Assembly (NCBI RefSeq): GCF_024204645.1
Contig: NZ_CP100351.1
Location: forward strand, 1,054,001 to 1,118,000
Reading direction: 5' to 3'
Source: Desulfomicrobium sp. ZS1
GTDB taxonomy: Bacteria; Desulfobacterota; Desulfovibrionia; Desulfovibrionales; Desulfomicrobiaceae
DNA: 64,000 bases
Below, in pieces: positions 36,965 through 54,761 of this stretch (the stretch's first letter is position 1; each line of letters starts with the position of its first letter). The notes beneath the pieces were generated by a model, which saw only the letters and a list, made by a program, of their open reading frames with translations, did no database searches and was not told the DNA's origin. The position numbers were made by a program, and so were the translations under genes.

Positions 36965-37564
36965 GTTGATATCCTTGGGTTGGGCGCGGGGCGCCGTGGT
37001 TTGAAGAATGGGAAAATGGTTTGTGGCAGTGCGGCCGCGTTCCGGATCGAGAGTGGGAGCGTGACACATTTGCCTGTCTATTCATGCACAACATTTTCAA
37101 GTCGCAGCAGTGTCATTCCCGCGAACGTGTGCCCGTTAGGGTAGGCGGGAATCCAGAGTATTTTTGCCTCTGTTGGTCGCATCAGGAAATGGTTTGCACC
37201 AGTGCGGCCGCGTCCCGGTTCGATTCGGGCCGGGGCCGCCAAAACTCCTTCACCGGCCTCGTAATGCTTTCCCGTCGCTGCTGTCGAACAGACTGCCGCG
37301 CTTCGACCGGGAGGCGACGGGAAAACAAACGATGCCTGGCTCAGTCAAACAGTTGCCGCCCCCGGCCCGCATCAAACCGGAACGCTGGGCTGGCGATTTG
37401 AGAAGGGGCATCGCGAAGCATTTGCCTGTCTGTCCATGGCGCAGAATTTCCTAATCACCTCGGTGTCATTCCCGCGTAGGCGGGAATCCATGCCCTTTTA
37501 ACCGAGGCGAAGATGGATCCCCGCCTTCGCGGGGATGACGCTGGAGTATCGCGAACGTGCATCC
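36965..37564. repeat. 600-base block of dispersed repeats between thiY and thiX
   Basis: Gene-free. It holds REP-like palindromes at 37112-37156, 37465-37492 and 37513-37539. It also holds a full hairpin repeat at about 37184-37400, with stem 37268-37278 / 37314-37324, related to 46481-46650. Partial copies of its ends are also present: AAATGGTTTG near 37015 and 37187 with GTGCGGCCGCGT at 37029 and 37203, and ATTTGCCTGTCT at 37068 and 37420. The block looks like several rounds of repeat insertion. Confidence 0.8.
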
Positions 37565-46480: not shown

Positions 46481-46650
46481 CTCCATGCGGTCGCGTCCCG
46501 GTTCGTCCCGGCCAAGGACCGTCGAAACTCCTTCGCTGGCCTCGTAGAGTCGAACCATTACGTGCGGATTTGACAGGGCGAGGCAGCGCGACCGGCAATG
46601 GTTCGACAAACGATGCCTGGCTCAGTCAGACAGTCGATGGCCTTGACCGG
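46481..46650. repeat. dispersed hairpin repeat, copy upstream of ispG
   Basis: Conserved left flank (GCGTCCCGGTTCG, AAACTCCTTCGCTGGCCTCG), then stem GTCGAACCATT (46549-46559), a 37-base centre, the perfect partner AATGGTTCGAC (46597-46607), and the conserved right flank AAACGATGCCTGGCTCAGTC. The other copy is at 37184-37400. Stem sequences differ completely but pairing is kept. Confidence 0.8.
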
Positions 46651-46803
46651 GACGGACCGAGGCGCTCGGAACGATCGTTGGTGGGGGAAGAATTTCTGTC
46701 TCTTTGTATGTGAGCCAGCTTTCTTTTGTCCGGCAGAGGCGGTTGGAAATTTAGGATTTCCCGTCCTTGGCTTTGAAGACCAAATTCATTACGCTCCCCC
46801 GCC

Positions 46804-47961: not shown

Positions 47962-49050
47962 ATGCCTGGTAAGGATTTTCAGGACCGCGCCGTCGGGGCC
48001 ATCATGGGGGCCTTCATAGGCGACGCCTTGGCTCTGGGACCGCATTGGTACTACAATCTGGACGACCTGCGCCGCGACTACGGCGATTGGATCACCGGCT
48101 ATACCGACCCCAAGCCCGGCCGTTACCATGCAGGCTTGAGGGCCGGACAGCAGTCCCAGGCGGGATTCATCCTTGAACTGACGCTGGCCTCTCTGGTGGA
48201 GCGCGGCGGGTATGATGCCGAGGATTTCTGCCAGCGCATGGACCATGAGCTGTTTCCCCTGCTCGACGGCACGCCCGTGAGCGGACCGGGGAGCTACACC
48301 AGCCAGTCCATTCGCGAGGCCTGGCGGCGGCGCGTCAAACAAAAGCTGCCGTGGGGACAGACCGCGGGACAGGCCGATACCACCGAGGCCATCGAACGCA
48401 CCCTGGCCATCGCGGTGCGCTACGCCCTTGATCCCGCGCAGCTTGCCACGGCCGTGGCCGGTAACGCCGCCCTGACCCAGGCTGACGACCTCGTCCTGTC
48501 CCTGACCGTGGCCTTCGGCGCCGTGCTCGGGCAACTGGTGCAGGGACATCCGCTGGATGCGACGATTTCCGACCGGCTTATGAAGCTGGTCAAGACCGGG
48601 GAGCTGCCGTTTCACGCCGTGACGCGCGAGAACCTGCAGCCGCCACGGCCGGGTGATCCCGATCCGCCGCGCGCCGGGCGTTTCGCGTCTCCGGACGCGC
48701 TCCTGTCCCCGGCGTACATGGCCGCCGCGGCTGCGGACCCAGGCGTGCGCATCGAACCGGCCTGGAAGGTCTCCCTGGTCTATGGCATGCCCTGCGCCAT
48801 CTACCATCAGCTGCCCGCAGCCTACTATCTTGCGGCGCGCTTCCGTGACGACTTTGAATCCGCCGTGCTCCATGCGGTGAACGGCGGCGGACAGAACCAA
48901 GCCCGCGCTATCCTGACCGGCGCCCTGGTCGGAGCTCAGACGGGATTTTCCGGCATCCCCTGGCGCTTCACGGACGGCCTTGTGCGAGGCACCGACCTGC
49001 TGGAGCTTGCGGAGAGGCTGGCGGAGCAGGCGGCGGGGGAGGGCCGTTGA
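47962..49050 (+). CDS. ADP-ribosylglycohydrolase-family protein with altered metal site
   Basis: 362 residues. The N-terminal GAFIGDALALGPHWYYN is the family start. At the C-terminus, where dinuclear-Mg enzymes have GGDTDT, this protein has NGGGQNQARAILTGALVGAQ, so the key Asp residues are Gln/Asn. This form recalls the J1-crystallin branch of the family. The reaction may be lost or changed. GGGGGTG precedes the ATG. The stop overlaps the TTG start of the next gene. Confidence 0.88.
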   Translation: MPGKDFQDRAVGAIMGAFIGDALALGPHWYYNLDDLRRDYGDWITGYTDPKPGRYHAGLRAGQQSQAGFILELTLASLVERGGYDAEDFCQRMDHELFPLLDGTPVSGPGSYTSQSIREAWRRRVKQKLPWGQTAGQADTTEAIERTLAIAVRYALDPAQLATAVAGNAALTQADDLVLSLTVAFGAVLGQLVQGHPLDATISDRLMKLVKTGELPFHAVTRENLQPPRPGDPDPPRAGRFASPDALLSPAYMAAAAADPGVRIEPAWKVSLVYGMPCAIYHQLPAAYYLAARFRDDFESAVLHAVNGGGQNQARAILTGALVGAQTGFSGIPWRFTDGLVRGTDLLELAERLAEQAAGEGR

Positions 49051-50186
49051 GTTCCAAACTTTTTCACTACGGTTCCCTTTTGGGAAAGATCAAGTCTCGT
49101 ATCCGCTCGGCGCAGGCGAAAGCGGCGCTTTCCGCTAACGCGGAGATGATAGCCATGTATTGGGACATCGGGCGGATGATCCATAATCGTCAAGTTGAAG
49201 AGGGGTGGGGGGCGGGCGTCATTCCTCGGCTGGCTGCGGATTTGAAAAATGAACTACCTGAAGTTAAAGGATTTTCTGAACGAAATCTGAAGTACATGAT
49301 TCGTTTTGCTCGAGAATATGGTAAGGATTTGGATGATGGGTTTCTTTCTTCGCGGGCAATTGTGCAGCAGCCTGCTGCACTTTTCGCAGATGGCGATGAT
49401 CGAGGACCAATTGTGCAGCAGGTTGCTGCACAATCGGAAATGCCCCTTGCCGTCATATTGGGGCTGCCGTGGTTTCATCACATAACCCTCTTGGAGAAGG
49501 TCAAGGATCCGTCCGTTCGGGCATGGTATGCGTGGCGGGCACTGGAGCAGGGCTGGAGTCGGGATGCGCTTATGGCCCAGATCAGGGGGCAGGTACACAA
49601 GCGTCAGGGCAGCGCAGTTACAAACTTCATCGCGACCTTGCCGGCCATCCATGCTGATCTGGCGCAGCGACTTCTCAAGGATCCTTACCTCTTTGATTTT
49701 TTGACTATCGAGGAACCGTTTCACGAACGGGAACTGGAAACCAGTCTTGTCCGGCATCTGGAGAAATTTCTTCTTGAACTGGGGGCGGGTTTTGCGTTTG
49801 TCGGACGCCAGTATCACTTGGCGATAAGTGACCGGGATTTTTATCTTGATCTGCTGTTCTACCACTTGAAGCTGCGCTGTTTCATCGTGATTGAACTGAA
49901 GAAGGGCGACTTCAAACCCGAGTACGCCGGGAAAATGAATTTTTATTGTTCCGTGGTCGATGACCAGCTCAGAAACGAAAGCGACAACCTGACCATTGGC
50001 TTGATTCTGTGTCAGACCAAAGACAGGATCCTGGCGGAATACACGTTGCGCGACATGCACAAGCCTATTGGTATTTCCGAATACGAATTGACTCGGTCAT
50101 TGCCGGAGAACTTCAAGTCTGCATTGCCTACCGTGGAAGAGATTGAAGCGGAATTGGACGGGCTTGGCAGTGGGGAACGAATTTGA
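49047..50186 (+). CDS. DUF1016 (YhcG-type) PD-(D/E)XK nuclease-like protein, first copy
   Basis: 379 residues starting with TTG at 49047, which overlaps the preceding TGA. The N-terminal helical DUF1016 domain has YWDIGRMIHNRQVEEGWGAGVI and FSERNLKYMIRFAREY. The C-terminal PD-(D/E)XK nuclease core has FVGRQYHLAISDRDFYLDLLFYHLKLRCFIVIELKKG. Residues 103-127 hold a duplicated IVQQ(P/V)AA motif coded by two palindromic DNA repeats. This family is often found near restriction or mobile genes; its task is not established. A second copy lies at 52338-53378. Confidence 0.9.
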   Translation: MSSKLFHYGSLLGKIKSRIRSAQAKAALSANAEMIAMYWDIGRMIHNRQVEEGWGAGVIPRLAADLKNELPEVKGFSERNLKYMIRFAREYGKDLDDGFLSSRAIVQQPAALFADGDDRGPIVQQVAAQSEMPLAVILGLPWFHHITLLEKVKDPSVRAWYAWRALEQGWSRDALMAQIRGQVHKRQGSAVTNFIATLPAIHADLAQRLLKDPYLFDFLTIEEPFHERELETSLVRHLEKFLLELGAGFAFVGRQYHLAISDRDFYLDLLFYHLKLRCFIVIELKKGDFKPEYAGKMNFYCSVVDDQLRNESDNLTIGLILCQTKDRILAEYTLRDMHKPIGISEYELTRSLPENFKSALPTVEEIEAELDGLGSGERI

Positions 50187-50252: not shown

Positions 50253-51995
50253 ATGCTGTTCAGCAAATTCTACGTGCCCACCCTGAAGGAAACCCCGGCC
50301 GAGGCCGAGGTGATCAGCCACAAGCTTCTGCTGCGCGCGGGCATGATCCGCAAGCTGACCAGCGGCATCTACACCTACATGCCGCTTGGCCTTCGCGCCA
50401 TCAACAAGGTCGCCAGCATCGTGCGCGAGGAGATGAACCGGGCCGGGGCCCAGGAAATTTCCATGCCCATGGTGCAGCCGGCCGATCTGTGGCAGGAGAG
50501 CGGGCGCTGGGATTTCTACGGCAAGGAGCTCCTGCGCCTCAAAGACCGCAACGGCCGCGACTACTGCCTCGGACCCACGCACGAGGAGGTCATCACCGAT
50601 CTTGTACGTGGCGAGGTCCGCTCCTACCGTCAGCTGCCCATCAACCTGTACCAGATCCAGACCAAGTTCCGGGACGAGATCCGGCCCCGCTTCGGCCTCA
50701 TGCGCGGCCGTGAGTTCATCATGAAGGACGCCTATTCCTTCGACAAGGACGATGAGGGCGTGAACGCCAGCTACCAGGCCATGTACGACGCCTACACCCG
50801 CGTCTTCACTCGTTTGGGCCTGGAATTTCGGGCCGTTAGCGCAGACTCCGGCGCCATCGGCGGCAGTTTTTCCCATGAGTTTATGGTGCTGGCCGACACC
50901 GGCGAGGACACCCTGGCTGTGTGCACGTCCTGCTCCTACGCCGCCAACCTGGAGAAGGCCGAAACAAAGTCCCAGCCCATGTGCACGACTACCTGCGCCG
51001 CGTTCGAGCAGGTGGCTACTCCGGGTAAGCACACGGTGGAAGACGTGGCCGGATTTTTGGCCGTGGCTACGACCCAGGTCATGAAGACCCTGCTCTTCGA
51101 CGTGGACGGCAAATCCGTGGCCGTGCTGCTGCGCGGTGACCGCGAAGTCAATGACGTGAAGTTGAAAAACCTTCTCGGTGCGACCAGCGTCGAGCTGGCC
51201 ACCCCGGAACAGGTCGTGGCCTGGACCGGCGCGCCCGTGGGCTTTGCCGGACCGGTGGGCCTCAAGGTCGACGCCATCTACGCAGACCATGAAATCGCGG
51301 CAGGCACGGACTTTGTCTGCGGAGCCAACGCCGCTGACACGCACCTCCTCCACGTCGACCCGCGCCGCGACATCATCTTGTCCACGGACGCCGCCCCCAC
51401 GGGCTACGCGGACCTGCGCTCCATCACCCTGGACGACCCCTGCCCGGCCTGTGGCGGCTCCCTGACCATGCCCAAGGGCATCGAGGTCGGCCACGTCTTC
51501 AAGCTCGGCACCAAGTATTCCAAATCCATGAACGCGACCTTCCTGGACGAGAACGGTAAGGAACAGCTCCTTATAATGGGCTGCTACGGCATCGGCGTCA
51601 GCCGCGTGGTCGCGGCCTGCATCGAGCAGAACAATGACGCGAACGGCATGATCTTCCCGCCGTCCATCGCGCCCTTTGAAATCACCATCCTGGCCATGTC
51701 CACCAAGGACGAAAAGGTCATGGCCAAAGGCCGTGAAATCCACGACTGGCTCGAATCCCAAGGCATCGACACCCTCTTCGACGACCGCGACGAGCGCCCC
51801 GGCGTAAAGTTCAACGAAGCGGACCTGCTCGGTTCCCCCATGCAGATCGTCATCGGTGGCAAGGGGCTGGAAAAGGGCGTGCTGGAGGTGAAGAACCGCA
51901 AGACGGGCGAGAAGAGGGAGCTGCCCGTGGCGGAGTGGCAGAATGCGGTTCTGGAATGGAGGAAGGAAGTGATGAAGGAGTGGGGGCTGGCGTAG
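50253..51995 (+). CDS. proS: prolyl-tRNA synthetase
   Basis: 580 residues, bacterial type with the YbaK-like editing domain inserted (about 230-390). Class II motifs: motif 1 [31 protein letters not shown], motif 2 region [27 protein letters not shown], and motif 3 [23 protein letters not shown] precedes the ATG. Confidence 0.97.
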
Positions 51996-52069
51996 CCTGC
52001 TAATTTTGAAAACGAGGCCGGGACGTTGCGGCGAACCGCAATGCCCCGGCCGTTGACCCTCTGGAACCT

Positions 52070-52321
52070 ATGTACATATTTTCCGTCCGAACCCTGACCC
52101 AAGCCATCAAGGATGTCCTCGAAGGCGAATTCCCGTTTGTCTGGGTCCGGGGGCAGGTTTCCAACCTCTCTCGCCCTCCGTCCGGGCCTGTGTATTTTTC
52201 CCTCAAGGACGATGCCGCCACTTTGAGCGAGGTCTGGTTCAAGGGGATCAACCTAAAGTCGGGGATGGCGAACGGGGTTAATCCGGTGCCGGCGAGCCCT
52301 TCCAACTGCGCAGTAAGCTGA
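52070..52321 (+). pseudogene. xseA': truncated 5' duplicate of xseA
   Basis: The first 59 codons match the intact xseA at 53391: about 163 of 177 bases are identical by my eye count, most differences at third positions. Similarity weakens after FKG but GTTAATCC...GCCGGCGAG is still recognisable, then the frame ends at 52321. Only the start of the OB-fold remains, so it is not functional as a nuclease subunit. It lies 16 bases before the second DUF1016 gene and may serve as its translated leader. Confidence 0.92.
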
Positions 52322-52337
52322 GAGCAGGGAGCGAAGC

Positions 52338-53378
52338 ATGAAACAGCTTGTTAAGCCGGAGATGGCTGATTCAACCATCCTTGTGAATACACTCCGGGAC
52401 TTGATCCGTCAGGCGCGGCAGCAGGTGCTGCGCAGCGTCGATACCATACAGGTGCAGACGTATTGGCAGATCGGCAGGCATATCGTTGAGTTCGAACAGG
52501 GCGGGCAGGCTCGGGCCGATTATGGAAAGCGGCTGTTGTCCAATTTGGCTGATGCGCTCACCCAGGAATTCGGCAAGGGATTTGATGAGCGTAACTTGCG
52601 GAATATGCGGGCTTTTTTTCAGTGCTTTCCGAATTGGAACGCGGTGCGTTCCGAATTGAGTTGGACGCATTACCGCCTGCTGCTACGGGTGGATTCACCT
52701 GAGGCGCGCAACTGGTACATGGACGAAACGGCAGGGCAAAATTGGAGCACGCGGGTTCTTGAGCGACAGATAGGCACCCTGTTTTATGAACGTTTGTTGT
52801 CCAGCAAGGATAAGCAGAGGTTGCTCGAAGATTCGCGAGAGCAGGTGCGGTCGGAGATCGGTTCACCACGCGATTTCGTGCGTGATCCGGTTATGCTGGA
52901 ATTTCTGGGTGTTCGTGATTTGGCTGGATTGCTGGAGTCTGATTTGGAGCAGGCGCTCATGAATAAGCTGCAGCAGTTTCTGCTGGAACTTGGCAAGGGC
53001 TTCGCTTTTGTCGCACGTCAGCAGCGCGTAAGCACAGAAACGCAGGATTTTTATATTGACCTCGTGTTCTATAACTATGTGCTCAAGTGTTTTGTGCTGA
53101 TCGATCTGAAGACAGGTCATCTTTCGCATCAGGATATCGGTCAGATGGACATGTATGTGCGTCTGTATGACGATTTGCGCCGTGGGGAAGGCGACAACCC
53201 GACAGTTGGAATATTGCTTTGTGGCAGCAAGGATCATTCGGTTGCCAGGTATTCCGTATTGCACGAAAGTCAGCAGTTATTTGCAAGCAAATACAGGTTG
53301 GTGCTGCCCAGCGAAGAGGAACTTCGCCGGGAACTGGACCGTGAAACCCAGGCTGCGCGGTCGTGGCTTAGCGATTAA
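52338..53378 (+). CDS. DUF1016 (YhcG-type) PD-(D/E)XK nuclease-like protein, second copy, inserted at xseA
   Basis: 346 residues, GGGAG before the ATG. DUF1016 N-terminal domain (VQTYWQIGRHIVEFEQGGQARADYG; FDERNLRNMRAFFQCFP) and nuclease core (FVARQQRVSTETQDFYIDLVFYNYVLKCFVLIDLKTG). It lies exactly between a truncated xseA start and the intact xseA, with only 12-16 bases on each side, so its arrival and the xseA duplication are probably one event. It is a diverged paralogue of the gene at 49047. Confidence 0.9.
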   Translation: MKQLVKPEMADSTILVNTLRDLIRQARQQVLRSVDTIQVQTYWQIGRHIVEFEQGGQARADYGKRLLSNLADALTQEFGKGFDERNLRNMRAFFQCFPNWNAVRSELSWTHYRLLLRVDSPEARNWYMDETAGQNWSTRVLERQIGTLFYERLLSSKDKQRLLEDSREQVRSEIGSPRDFVRDPVMLEFLGVRDLAGLLESDLEQALMNKLQQFLLELGKGFAFVARQQRVSTETQDFYIDLVFYNYVLKCFVLIDLKTGHLSHQDIGQMDMYVRLYDDLRRGEGDNPTVGILLCGSKDHSVARYSVLHESQQLFASKYRLVLPSEEELRRELDRETQAARSWLSD

Positions 53379-53390
53379 GAGAAGCCGCCC

Positions 53391-54761
53391 ATGCACATAT
53401 TCTCCGTCTGCACCCTCACTCAAGCCATCAAGGACGTCCTCGAGGGCGAATTCCCGTTCGTCTGGGTCCGGGGGCAGGTTTCCAACCTCTCTCGCCCGCC
53501 GTCCGGGCATGTGTATTTTTCCCTCAAGGACGATGACGCCACCTTGAGCGTGGTCTGGTTCAAGGGGGCTCAGCCCAAGGGTTCCAAGGAAGGAGACGAG
53601 CGGGTCAATCCTGTTACCGGCGAGGTGGAGAGCGGGGAGCCTTTTGAGCTTTGCGATGGGCAGGAAGTGCTCGTGGCCGGGCGCATGAATGTCTATCCGC
53701 CGCGCGGGGCCTATCAGCTGGTGGCGGAGTTGGTGCAGGGGCAGGGTTTGGGCGAGTTGGCCGTGGCCTTTGAGGCCATGAAGGCCAAACTTGCCGCCAA
53801 AGGGTATTTCGATCCGGACCGCAAGATGGTCCTGCCGCGCAATCCGCGTCGGGTGGCCGTGGTCACGGCTCCCCAAGGCGCGGCCTTGCAGGATTTTCTG
53901 CGCATCGCGGGCGACCGGGGCTATGGTGCCACCATTCGGGTCTATCCGAGCCTGGTGCAGGGCGAGAGCGCTCCGGCCCAGATCGCCGCCGCCCTGGACC
54001 GCGCCGACCGGGACGGATGGGCCGATGTCATCGCGCTCATTCGCGGCGGCGGGTCTCTCGAAGACCTGTGGGCCTTCAACACCGAGCCCGTGGCCGAGGC
54101 CGTGTTCCGGGCGCGGCTGCCGGTCGTGTGTGGGGTGGGGCATGAGGTGGATACGAGCATAGCCGATCTGGTGGCGGACCAGCGCGCGGCCACGCCGTCC
54201 CACGCGGCGCAGATTTTGTGGACCGAACGCGGCGTGCTGCGTCAGCAGACCGACGAAACTTTCCTGGCCCTGACGCGCGGCATGGATCGCTTGCTGGACC
54301 TGCGCGAGCGGGATCTGCAGCGCCATGCGCAGGGACTTGCCTGGCATTCCCCGGCCCGTCGCATCGAGCGCGGCGGCTTTGAACTGGAGCGCTTGGCAGG
54401 CCGTCTGCAGCAGGCCATTGGCACGCAGGTGGAAAGCCGCGCCATGACTCTGGCGCGTCTGCAGGATCGGATGTATCGATCCTTTGGCCCGGCCGCGATG
54501 CTGGCGCTGCGTTCGGAGCTGGACAGGGCGGAAGGGGCCCTGGAGCAGGCCGGAAGCCGTTTCGTGCGCGTGCGTCTGGAAAGTCTGCGTGGAATCGAAG
54601 GCCGTCTGGCCGCCCTGGACCCTGCGGCCCCGCTGGCGCGTGGGTACGCGCTGGTCAGGGGTTCAGCCGGTTTTGTTCGTTCGCGGGAAGATGTGCAGGC
54701 GGGGGATGAAATCCGGGTACAGGTCGCGGACGGGGAATTTTCAGCGGAGGTGTTGCCATGA
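53391..54761 (+). CDS. xseA: exodeoxyribonuclease VII large subunit
   Basis: 456 residues. N-terminal OB-fold (FSVCTLTQAIKDVLEGEFPFVWVRGQVSNL), catalytic region with RVAVVTAPQGAALQDFL, IRGGGSLEDLWAFN and GVGHEVDTSIADLVADQRAATPSHAA, then a coiled coil and C-terminal GYALVRG. It cuts single-stranded DNA with XseB. The ribosome site is weak (GAGAAG). It starts 12 bases after the DUF1016 gene, which now lies in its former upstream region. It overlaps the M23 gene by 4 bases. Confidence 0.96.
   Translation: MHIFSVCTLTQAIKDVLEGEFPFVWVRGQVSNLSRPPSGHVYFSLKDDDATLSVVWFKGAQPKGSKEGDERVNPVTGEVESGEPFELCDGQEVLVAGRMNVYPPRGAYQLVAELVQGQGLGELAVAFEAMKAKLAAKGYFDPDRKMVLPRNPRRVAVVTAPQGAALQDFLRIAGDRGYGATIRVYPSLVQGESAPAQIAAALDRADRDGWADVIALIRGGGSLEDLWAFNTEPVAEAVFRARLPVVCGVGHEVDTSIADLVADQRAATPSHAAQILWTERGVLRQQTDETFLALTRGMDRLLDLRERDLQRHAQGLAWHSPARRIERGGFELERLAGRLQQAIGTQVESRAMTLARLQDRMYRSFGPAAMLALRSELDRAEGALEQAGSRFVRVRLESLRGIEGRLAALDPAAPLARGYALVRGSAGFVRSREDVQAGDEIRVQVADGEFSAEVLP

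What the first reader, a model, noticed from the sequence alone, without database searches (positions are those of the whole stretch)
52030..53570. A DUF1016 nuclease gene flanked by two starts of xseA: an insertion that rebuilt its target
The first 177 bases of intact xseA (53391) recur at 52070 with about 14 differences by eye. The only thing between the two copies is one complete DUF1016 gene, with 12-16 bases on each side. A simple tandem duplication would give two near-identical copies; 8% divergence at mostly silent positions suggests that one of the two 5' ends came in with the nuclease gene from a related genome. The proposal is a small selfish unit that inserts into the start of an essential-type gene and brings a replacement start, so the host gene stays intact while the nuclease gene is fixed. 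This tactic is known for some integrases at tRNA genes. I do not know of it for DUF1016.
Basis: partly seen in the sequence, partly recalled or inferred. Interest (0 to 1): 0.68.

Follow-up and report, generated by a model that had tools for sequence, protein, structure and literature searches.

The report
Nuclease gene inserted at xseA start
A small predicted-nuclease gene has inserted at the start of the DNA-repair gene xseA, leaving the old start behind as a truncated open leader and xseA with an intact second start; related species carry other toxin-like genes at the same spot, sometimes with the same scar, so this looks like a way small defence or toxin genes spread without breaking the host gene.

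Summary
A 230-base truncated copy of the xseA start (52067-52296) precedes a complete DUF1016 nuclease gene and intact xseA. It is the strongest repeat in the window. Sister genomes show the empty site: the same 74-base proS-xseA gap with no insert. The truncated copy therefore sits at the native position, and the present xseA start belongs to the inserted side.

The event is not specific to DUF1016. In congeners this gap holds DUF1016 orthologues (with relic), a zeta-toxin pair flanked by a 138-bp 98.6% duplication of the xseA start, an unrelated DUF1016, a DUF559 nuclease, or an NTase-substrate-binding pair; some have nothing. Elsewhere, close DUF1016 relatives are bracketed by direct repeats of a neighbouring gene's start or end far more often than expected. 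In several loci the truncated start remains open and overlaps the cargo start by 4 nt.

Best reading: small defence/toxin cargo inserted with long target duplication, kept because the target is regenerated, and exchanged by ordinary homologous recombination through the duplicated start. Precedent exists for restriction-modification genes. Evidence that the new start came from a related genome is weak (first 57 nt only). Active homing by the nuclease is unsupported.

The parts
50253..51995 (+). proS (prolyl-tRNA synthetase), left neighbour, conserved in all relatives whose contig covers it
   Evidence: ORF; synteny
51996..52069 (.). native proS-xseA gap, 74 nt, the same length as in empty-site relatives G002 and G006
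52067..52296 (+). relic: truncated copy of the xseA start at the native position
   Evidence: direct repeat; Pfam tRNA_anti_2 N-terminal part
52070..52321 (+). relic ORF, 83 aa, still open; ends 16 nt before the DUF1016 ATG (4-nt overlap in G001, G004, G013)
52289..52337 (+). leader just before the DUF1016 gene, homologous in G000 and G001/G004 (0 of 500 shuffles reach the score)
52338..53378 (+). DUF1016/YhcG_C PD-(D/E)XK nuclease gene (cargo), 346 aa; PADLOC PDC-S02 defence candidate
53379..53390 (+). 12-nt spacer between cargo stop and xseA ATG, like that of G001/G004
53388..53624 (+). second copy of the repeat: the start of functional xseA
53391..54761 (+). intact xseA (exonuclease VII large subunit), 456 aa
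49047..50186 (+). second, distant DUF1016 gene between an ADP-ribosylglycohydrolase-like gene and proS; not part of the unit

Best explanation
A small cargo (short leader plus one DUF1016 nuclease gene) inserted at the 5' end of xseA in an ancestor of part of this genus, with a long (at least 230-nt) duplication of the xseA start. The upstream copy is the old native start, now truncated: it stays an open, probably translated leader that carries ribosomes from xseA's own promoter and start codon to the cargo. The downstream copy is the regenerated start of functional xseA. The duplicated starts also act as homology arms, so ordinary RecA-type recombination can move the cargo into an empty xseA, convert one copy by the other, or delete the cargo and restore xseA. 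The site accepts interchangeable toxin or defence cargo. Shown: relic at the native position, empty sites, recurrent cargo, flanking repeats elsewhere, open relic frames, unusually low divergence of the unit between G001 and G004. Inferred: RecA-type recombination as the route, leader translation, defence function, and clean excision.
For: (1) Native gap upstream of the relic, 74 nt as in G002 and G006. (2) The same gap holds different cargo in relatives. G008 has a zeta-like toxin plus small ORF between two xseA starts identical at 136/138 nt, including 19 nt of noncoding DNA. G013 has the zeta pair, then relic, then DUF1016, then xseA. (3) DUF1016 orthologues of the genus form one clade (100/99) ordered G013,(G000,(G001,G004)) inside a patchy multi-phylum tree. 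(4) The G001/G004 unit is nearly identical (DUF1016 dS 0.03) between flanks with dS 0.14-0.23; the low-divergence tract runs from just after proS to about nt 165 of xseA. (5) Relics are younger than the cargo: 56/57 identical to own xseA in G001 although DUF1016 dS G000-G001 is 0.44. (6) In 80 loci of close relatives, 15 spaced direct repeats bracket DUF1016 against 7 that do not, with 8.5% expected. (7) Relic frames are open and overlap the cargo start by 4 nt in G001, G004, G013, L057, L097, and by 8 nt in G008; DUF1016 starts show a peak at -4 generally, 33 of 80.
Against: The route of movement is not observed. DUF1016 dS between G000 and G001 is like that of the flanks, so one old insertion with losses in G002 and G006 is as good a history for G000 itself. 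The relic tail's similarity to xseA beyond nt ~234 is weak. In G000 the relic frame ends 16 nt before the cargo, so coupling is looser there. Five of the 12 bracketing loci are doubtful (small paralogous genes L101, L111, L133; DUF1016-internal repeat L100; dispersed repeats L135). Most DUF1016 relatives (about 68 of 80) show no flanking repeat.
Confidence: 0.6

Rival explanations
1. One-sided transfer (homology-facilitated illegitimate recombination): incoming linear DNA from a relative that already had cargo next to xseA paired homologously in xseA on the right and joined illegitimately inside the recipient's xseA start on the left, so the old start was left as a relic and the new start is donor DNA.
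For: The relic is contiguous with the native flank. Other insertions in the same gap lack a relic, as expected if the left joint fell in the intergenic region. The first 57 nt of functional xseA are closest to G013 (93%) while the rest follows sister G002. A similar process is proposed for T6SS immunity arrays (PMC5361080). Mirror cases duplicate a gene 3' end (L094, L046, L156, L172).
Against: 57 nt are too few: 5% of windows in the gene are as divergent from G002. In G008 the copies are 136/138 identical and both differences change the relic's amino acids, so no foreign donor is seen. It needs the cargo to have reached xseA in a donor first.
Confidence: 0.25
2. In-place tandem duplication of the xseA start with cargo trapped at the junction, followed by drift; no transfer through the duplicated starts.
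For: G008 copies nearly identical, including noncoding DNA. In G000 nt 58-180 the relic is closer to its own xseA (114/123) than to any other species'.
Against: The same site received unrelated cargo several times. The G001/G004 unit is too similar for its flanks. Relics are too similar to their own xseA given the age of DUF1016.
Confidence: 0.12
3. Homing: the DUF1016 nuclease cuts empty xseA starts and is copied in with a cleavage-resistant replacement start.
For: The protein belongs to the PD-(D/E)XK nuclease families (PMC1913061), and the two starts differ in G000.
Against: Non-nuclease cargo uses the same site with the same scar (G008 zeta). Close DUF1016 relatives sit next to unrelated genes. 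The G001 relic is 56/57 identical to its functional start over the retained part, so a resistance difference is not evident.
Confidence: 0.05
4. Site-specific integration by an integrase or cassette system that uses the xseA 5' end as attachment site.
For: Gene-end attachment sites that restore the gene are known for integrases (own knowledge).
Against: No recombinase in the unit. Repeat length varies from 57 to 230 nt at this site and targets differ elsewhere, unlike a fixed core.
Confidence: 0.03

Closest known systems
Insertion with long target duplication of restriction-modification genes (Helicobacter pylori; Nobusato 2000 as described in PMC1643837; RM systems with variable ~100-bp target duplications, PMC3874152)
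   Same: Small defence-type gene inserted with a long, variable duplication of target DNA and no transposase; one target copy intact
   Different: Cargo is a solitary DUF1016 nuclease or a zeta-toxin pair, with no methyltransferase; the truncated copy is an open leader overlapping the cargo start; one site receives different cargo in different species
Homology-facilitated illegitimate recombination and orphan immunity arrays (Vibrio T6SS, PMC5361080)
   Same: A conserved gene anchors incoming toxin cargo; displaced remnants of the old gene stay next to it
   Different: The anchor here is a housekeeping gene, not part of the toxin system
Mobile elements that integrate at gene ends and restore them (integrases at tRNA genes; own knowledge)
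   Same: Host gene regenerated by a copy at the insertion edge
   Different: No integrase, no fixed core, repeat length and target vary

Membership tests
DUF1016 / YhcG PD-(D/E)XK nuclease family | DUF1016_N plus YhcG_C domains above curated cut-offs | tested here: met
DUF1016 / YhcG PD-(D/E)XK nuclease family | nuclease activity | not testable with these tools
   no biochemical data; no relative in the PDB by sequence
Insertion with long target duplication (RM type) | insertion relative to an empty site in a related genome | tested here: met
   G002, G006 empty
Insertion with long target duplication (RM type) | direct repeats of tens to hundreds of bp derived from the target, one copy intact | tested here: met
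Insertion with long target duplication (RM type) | cargo is a restriction-modification system | tested here: not met
   only a DUF1016 gene lies between the copies
Insertion with long target duplication (RM type) | the two copies were identical when the insertion happened | tested here: inconclusive
   G008 136/138; G000 163/180 with discordant first 57 nt
Homing endonuclease element | cleaves the empty target site | not testable with these tools
   needs biochemistry
Homing endonuclease element | insertion at the site depends on the nuclease cargo | tested here: not met
   zeta-toxin, DUF559 and NTase-substrate-binding cargo in the same gap
Integrase-driven element at a gene end | recombinase gene and short fixed core | tested here: not met
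   no recombinase in the unit; repeat length varies

The most novel reading that the evidence does not exclude
Single-gene toxin and defence cargo form a widespread class of enzyme-free mobile units. They insert at a gene start or end, use the truncated start as a translated leader, regenerate the target, and then spread between relatives through the duplicated target as homology arms, with clean self-erasure possible.
Probability: 0.3. Interest if true: 0.75.

Novelty: new variant of a known kind. Interest (0 to 1): 0.52.

Why it matters
Many single-gene defence and toxin genes are patchily spread with no visible vehicle. A site with empty, single and stacked insertions, target duplications and interchangeable cargo makes one answer testable: host recombination plus regeneration of the target gene. 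It also gives a search signature (truncated gene start, open frame, overlap with cargo start) for finding recent arrivals and new defence candidates.

Tried and rejected
Testing donor origin of the xseA start by local similarity gave only a weak signal. The relic tail beyond xseA nt ~234 was first read as old xseA sequence; shuffles gave 4/500 and 11/500, so it is left open. Bracketing repeats in L101/L111/L133 (small paralogous genes), L100 (DUF1016-internal), L135 (dispersed repeats), and the DUF559 loci L189/L190 (repeat arrays or dispersed repeats) were set aside. Reading the 4-nt overlap as special to relics was tempered: it is common for DUF1016 starts in general, 33 of 80. Literature searches on DUF1016 or YhcG found no account of its mobility by target duplication; the 2010 paper on mobile RM forms is not held.

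Full report
Observation. The repeat is real and is the strongest in the window: 52067-52296 versus 53388-53624, 226 bits, against 78 bits for the next. Between the copies lies one complete gene of the DUF1016/YhcG nuclease type, which PADLOC lists as the phage-defence candidate PDC-S02. Downstream xseA is complete.

Empty sites and position. In the congeners G002 and G006 proS and xseA are separated by 74 nt and nothing else. In the window the distance from the proS stop to the ATG of the truncated copy is also 74 nt, and in G001 and G004 the upstream flank is homologous to the empty one. The truncated copy is therefore the old start, and the start now used belongs to the inserted side.

Recurrence at one site. 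The proS-xseA gap is a hotspot in this genus. G000, G001, G004 and G013 hold relic, DUF1016, xseA (G013 split over two contigs). G008 holds relic, a zeta-toxin-like gene (PF06414) with a small ORF, then xseA; its two starts match at 136 of 138 positions, including 19 nt of noncoding DNA. G013 has the zeta pair in front of its relic. G012 has a distant DUF1016, G003 a DUF559 nuclease, and G005/G014 a nucleotidyltransferase-substrate-binding pair, none with an obvious relic. G011 has 13 nt. Non-nuclease cargo at the same place, once with the same scar, argues against a process driven by the DUF1016 enzyme.

History. The genus's DUF1016 genes form one clade with order G013,(G000,(G001,G004)), inside a family scattered over many phyla. 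DUF1016 dS between G000 and G001 (0.44) is like that of the flanks (0.37-0.70), which fits old residence with loss in G002 and G006. Between G001 and G004, however, DUF1016 dS is 0.03 while neighbours are at 0.14-0.23, and the low-divergence tract starts just after proS and ends in the first 165 nt of xseA. The relics are also too young for an old insertion: 56/57 (G001) and 55/57 (G004) identical to their own xseA start, 163/180 in G000. Both facts point to recombination through the duplicated starts. A pair of Chlorobiaceae loci, L097 and L104, shows a comparable pattern: about 99% identity on both sides, but roughly 20-25% divergence in a short tract that covers the native flank and the first part of the relic.

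Origin of the new start. From nt 58 to 180 functional xseA is 119/123 identical to sister G002 and the relic 111/123. In nt 1-57 the functional copy is nearest to G013 (53/57) and the relic nearest to G006 (55/57), but 5% of 57-nt windows in the gene are as different from G002.

Generality. In 80 loci of close DUF1016 relatives, direct repeats of at least 40 bp spaced 1.0-2.6 kb bracket the DUF1016 gene 15 times and do not 7 times, with 8.5% expected. Leaving out doubtful loci, seven remain: an ABC-transporter start (L057, 191 bp), the start of a large ORF (L104 and L097), msrA (L125), hsdM (L066, where the start occurs three times with DUF1016 and then a PIN-type toxin between), an hsdM-adjacent repeat (L093) and a permease 3' end (L094) (the gene names for these loci are my reading of the translations). 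Other DUF1016 subfamilies (L046, L156) and zeta toxins (L158, L172) show the same. About 68 of 80 loci show no such repeat, so duplication is one outcome, or decays.

Leader. The truncated starts remain open frames: 83 aa (G000), 42 aa (G001, G004), 51 aa (G013), 49 aa (G008). Their stops overlap the cargo start by 4 nt in G001, G004 and G013 and by 8 nt in G008; in G000 the stop lies 16 nt before it. L057 and L097 also show 4-nt overlaps. DUF1016 genes in general favour a 4-nt overlap with an upstream frame (33 of 80). I infer that the old start, with its promoter and ribosome site, now feeds the cargo, and that the cargo hands ribosomes on to xseA 12 nt further.

Comparison. Insertion with long target duplication is described for restriction-modification genes (PMC1643837; PMC3874152), and one-sided homologous insertion with leftover gene fragments for T6SS immunity arrays (PMC5361080). 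This case is a variant: solitary nuclease or toxin cargo, a shared hotspot with interchangeable contents, and an open leader. I found no published account of DUF1016 moving this way, within the open library searched.

Noticed in passing
window 49047-50186: A second, distant DUF1016 gene whose TTG start overlaps the stop of an ADP-ribosylglycohydrolase-like gene; G002 keeps only its first 154 codons, G012 has a 73% relative in the same place without the glycohydrolase.
   Followed up: partly
L066 5805-8234: The start of hsdM occurs three times: before DUF1016, before a RhuM-like fragment plus a PIN-type toxin pair, and in the full gene; stacked insertions each ending on the hsdM start codon.
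   Followed up: partly
L046 668-3386: In G013 a different DUF1016 subfamily sits between a DMT-type transporter gene and a 683-bp 87.6% copy of its 3' part.
   Followed up: partly
L097 2950-3175 vs L104: Two Chlorobiaceae loci nearly identical except for a short strongly diverged tract covering the native flank and the first part of the relic.
   Followed up: yes
L030 8920-9878: In G003 the proS-xseA gap holds a DUF559 gene followed by repeated GC-rich units.
   Followed up: no
window 37203-37389 and 46486-46669: A dispersed direct repeat, 66% identical over 189 bp, outside the finding.
   Followed up: no
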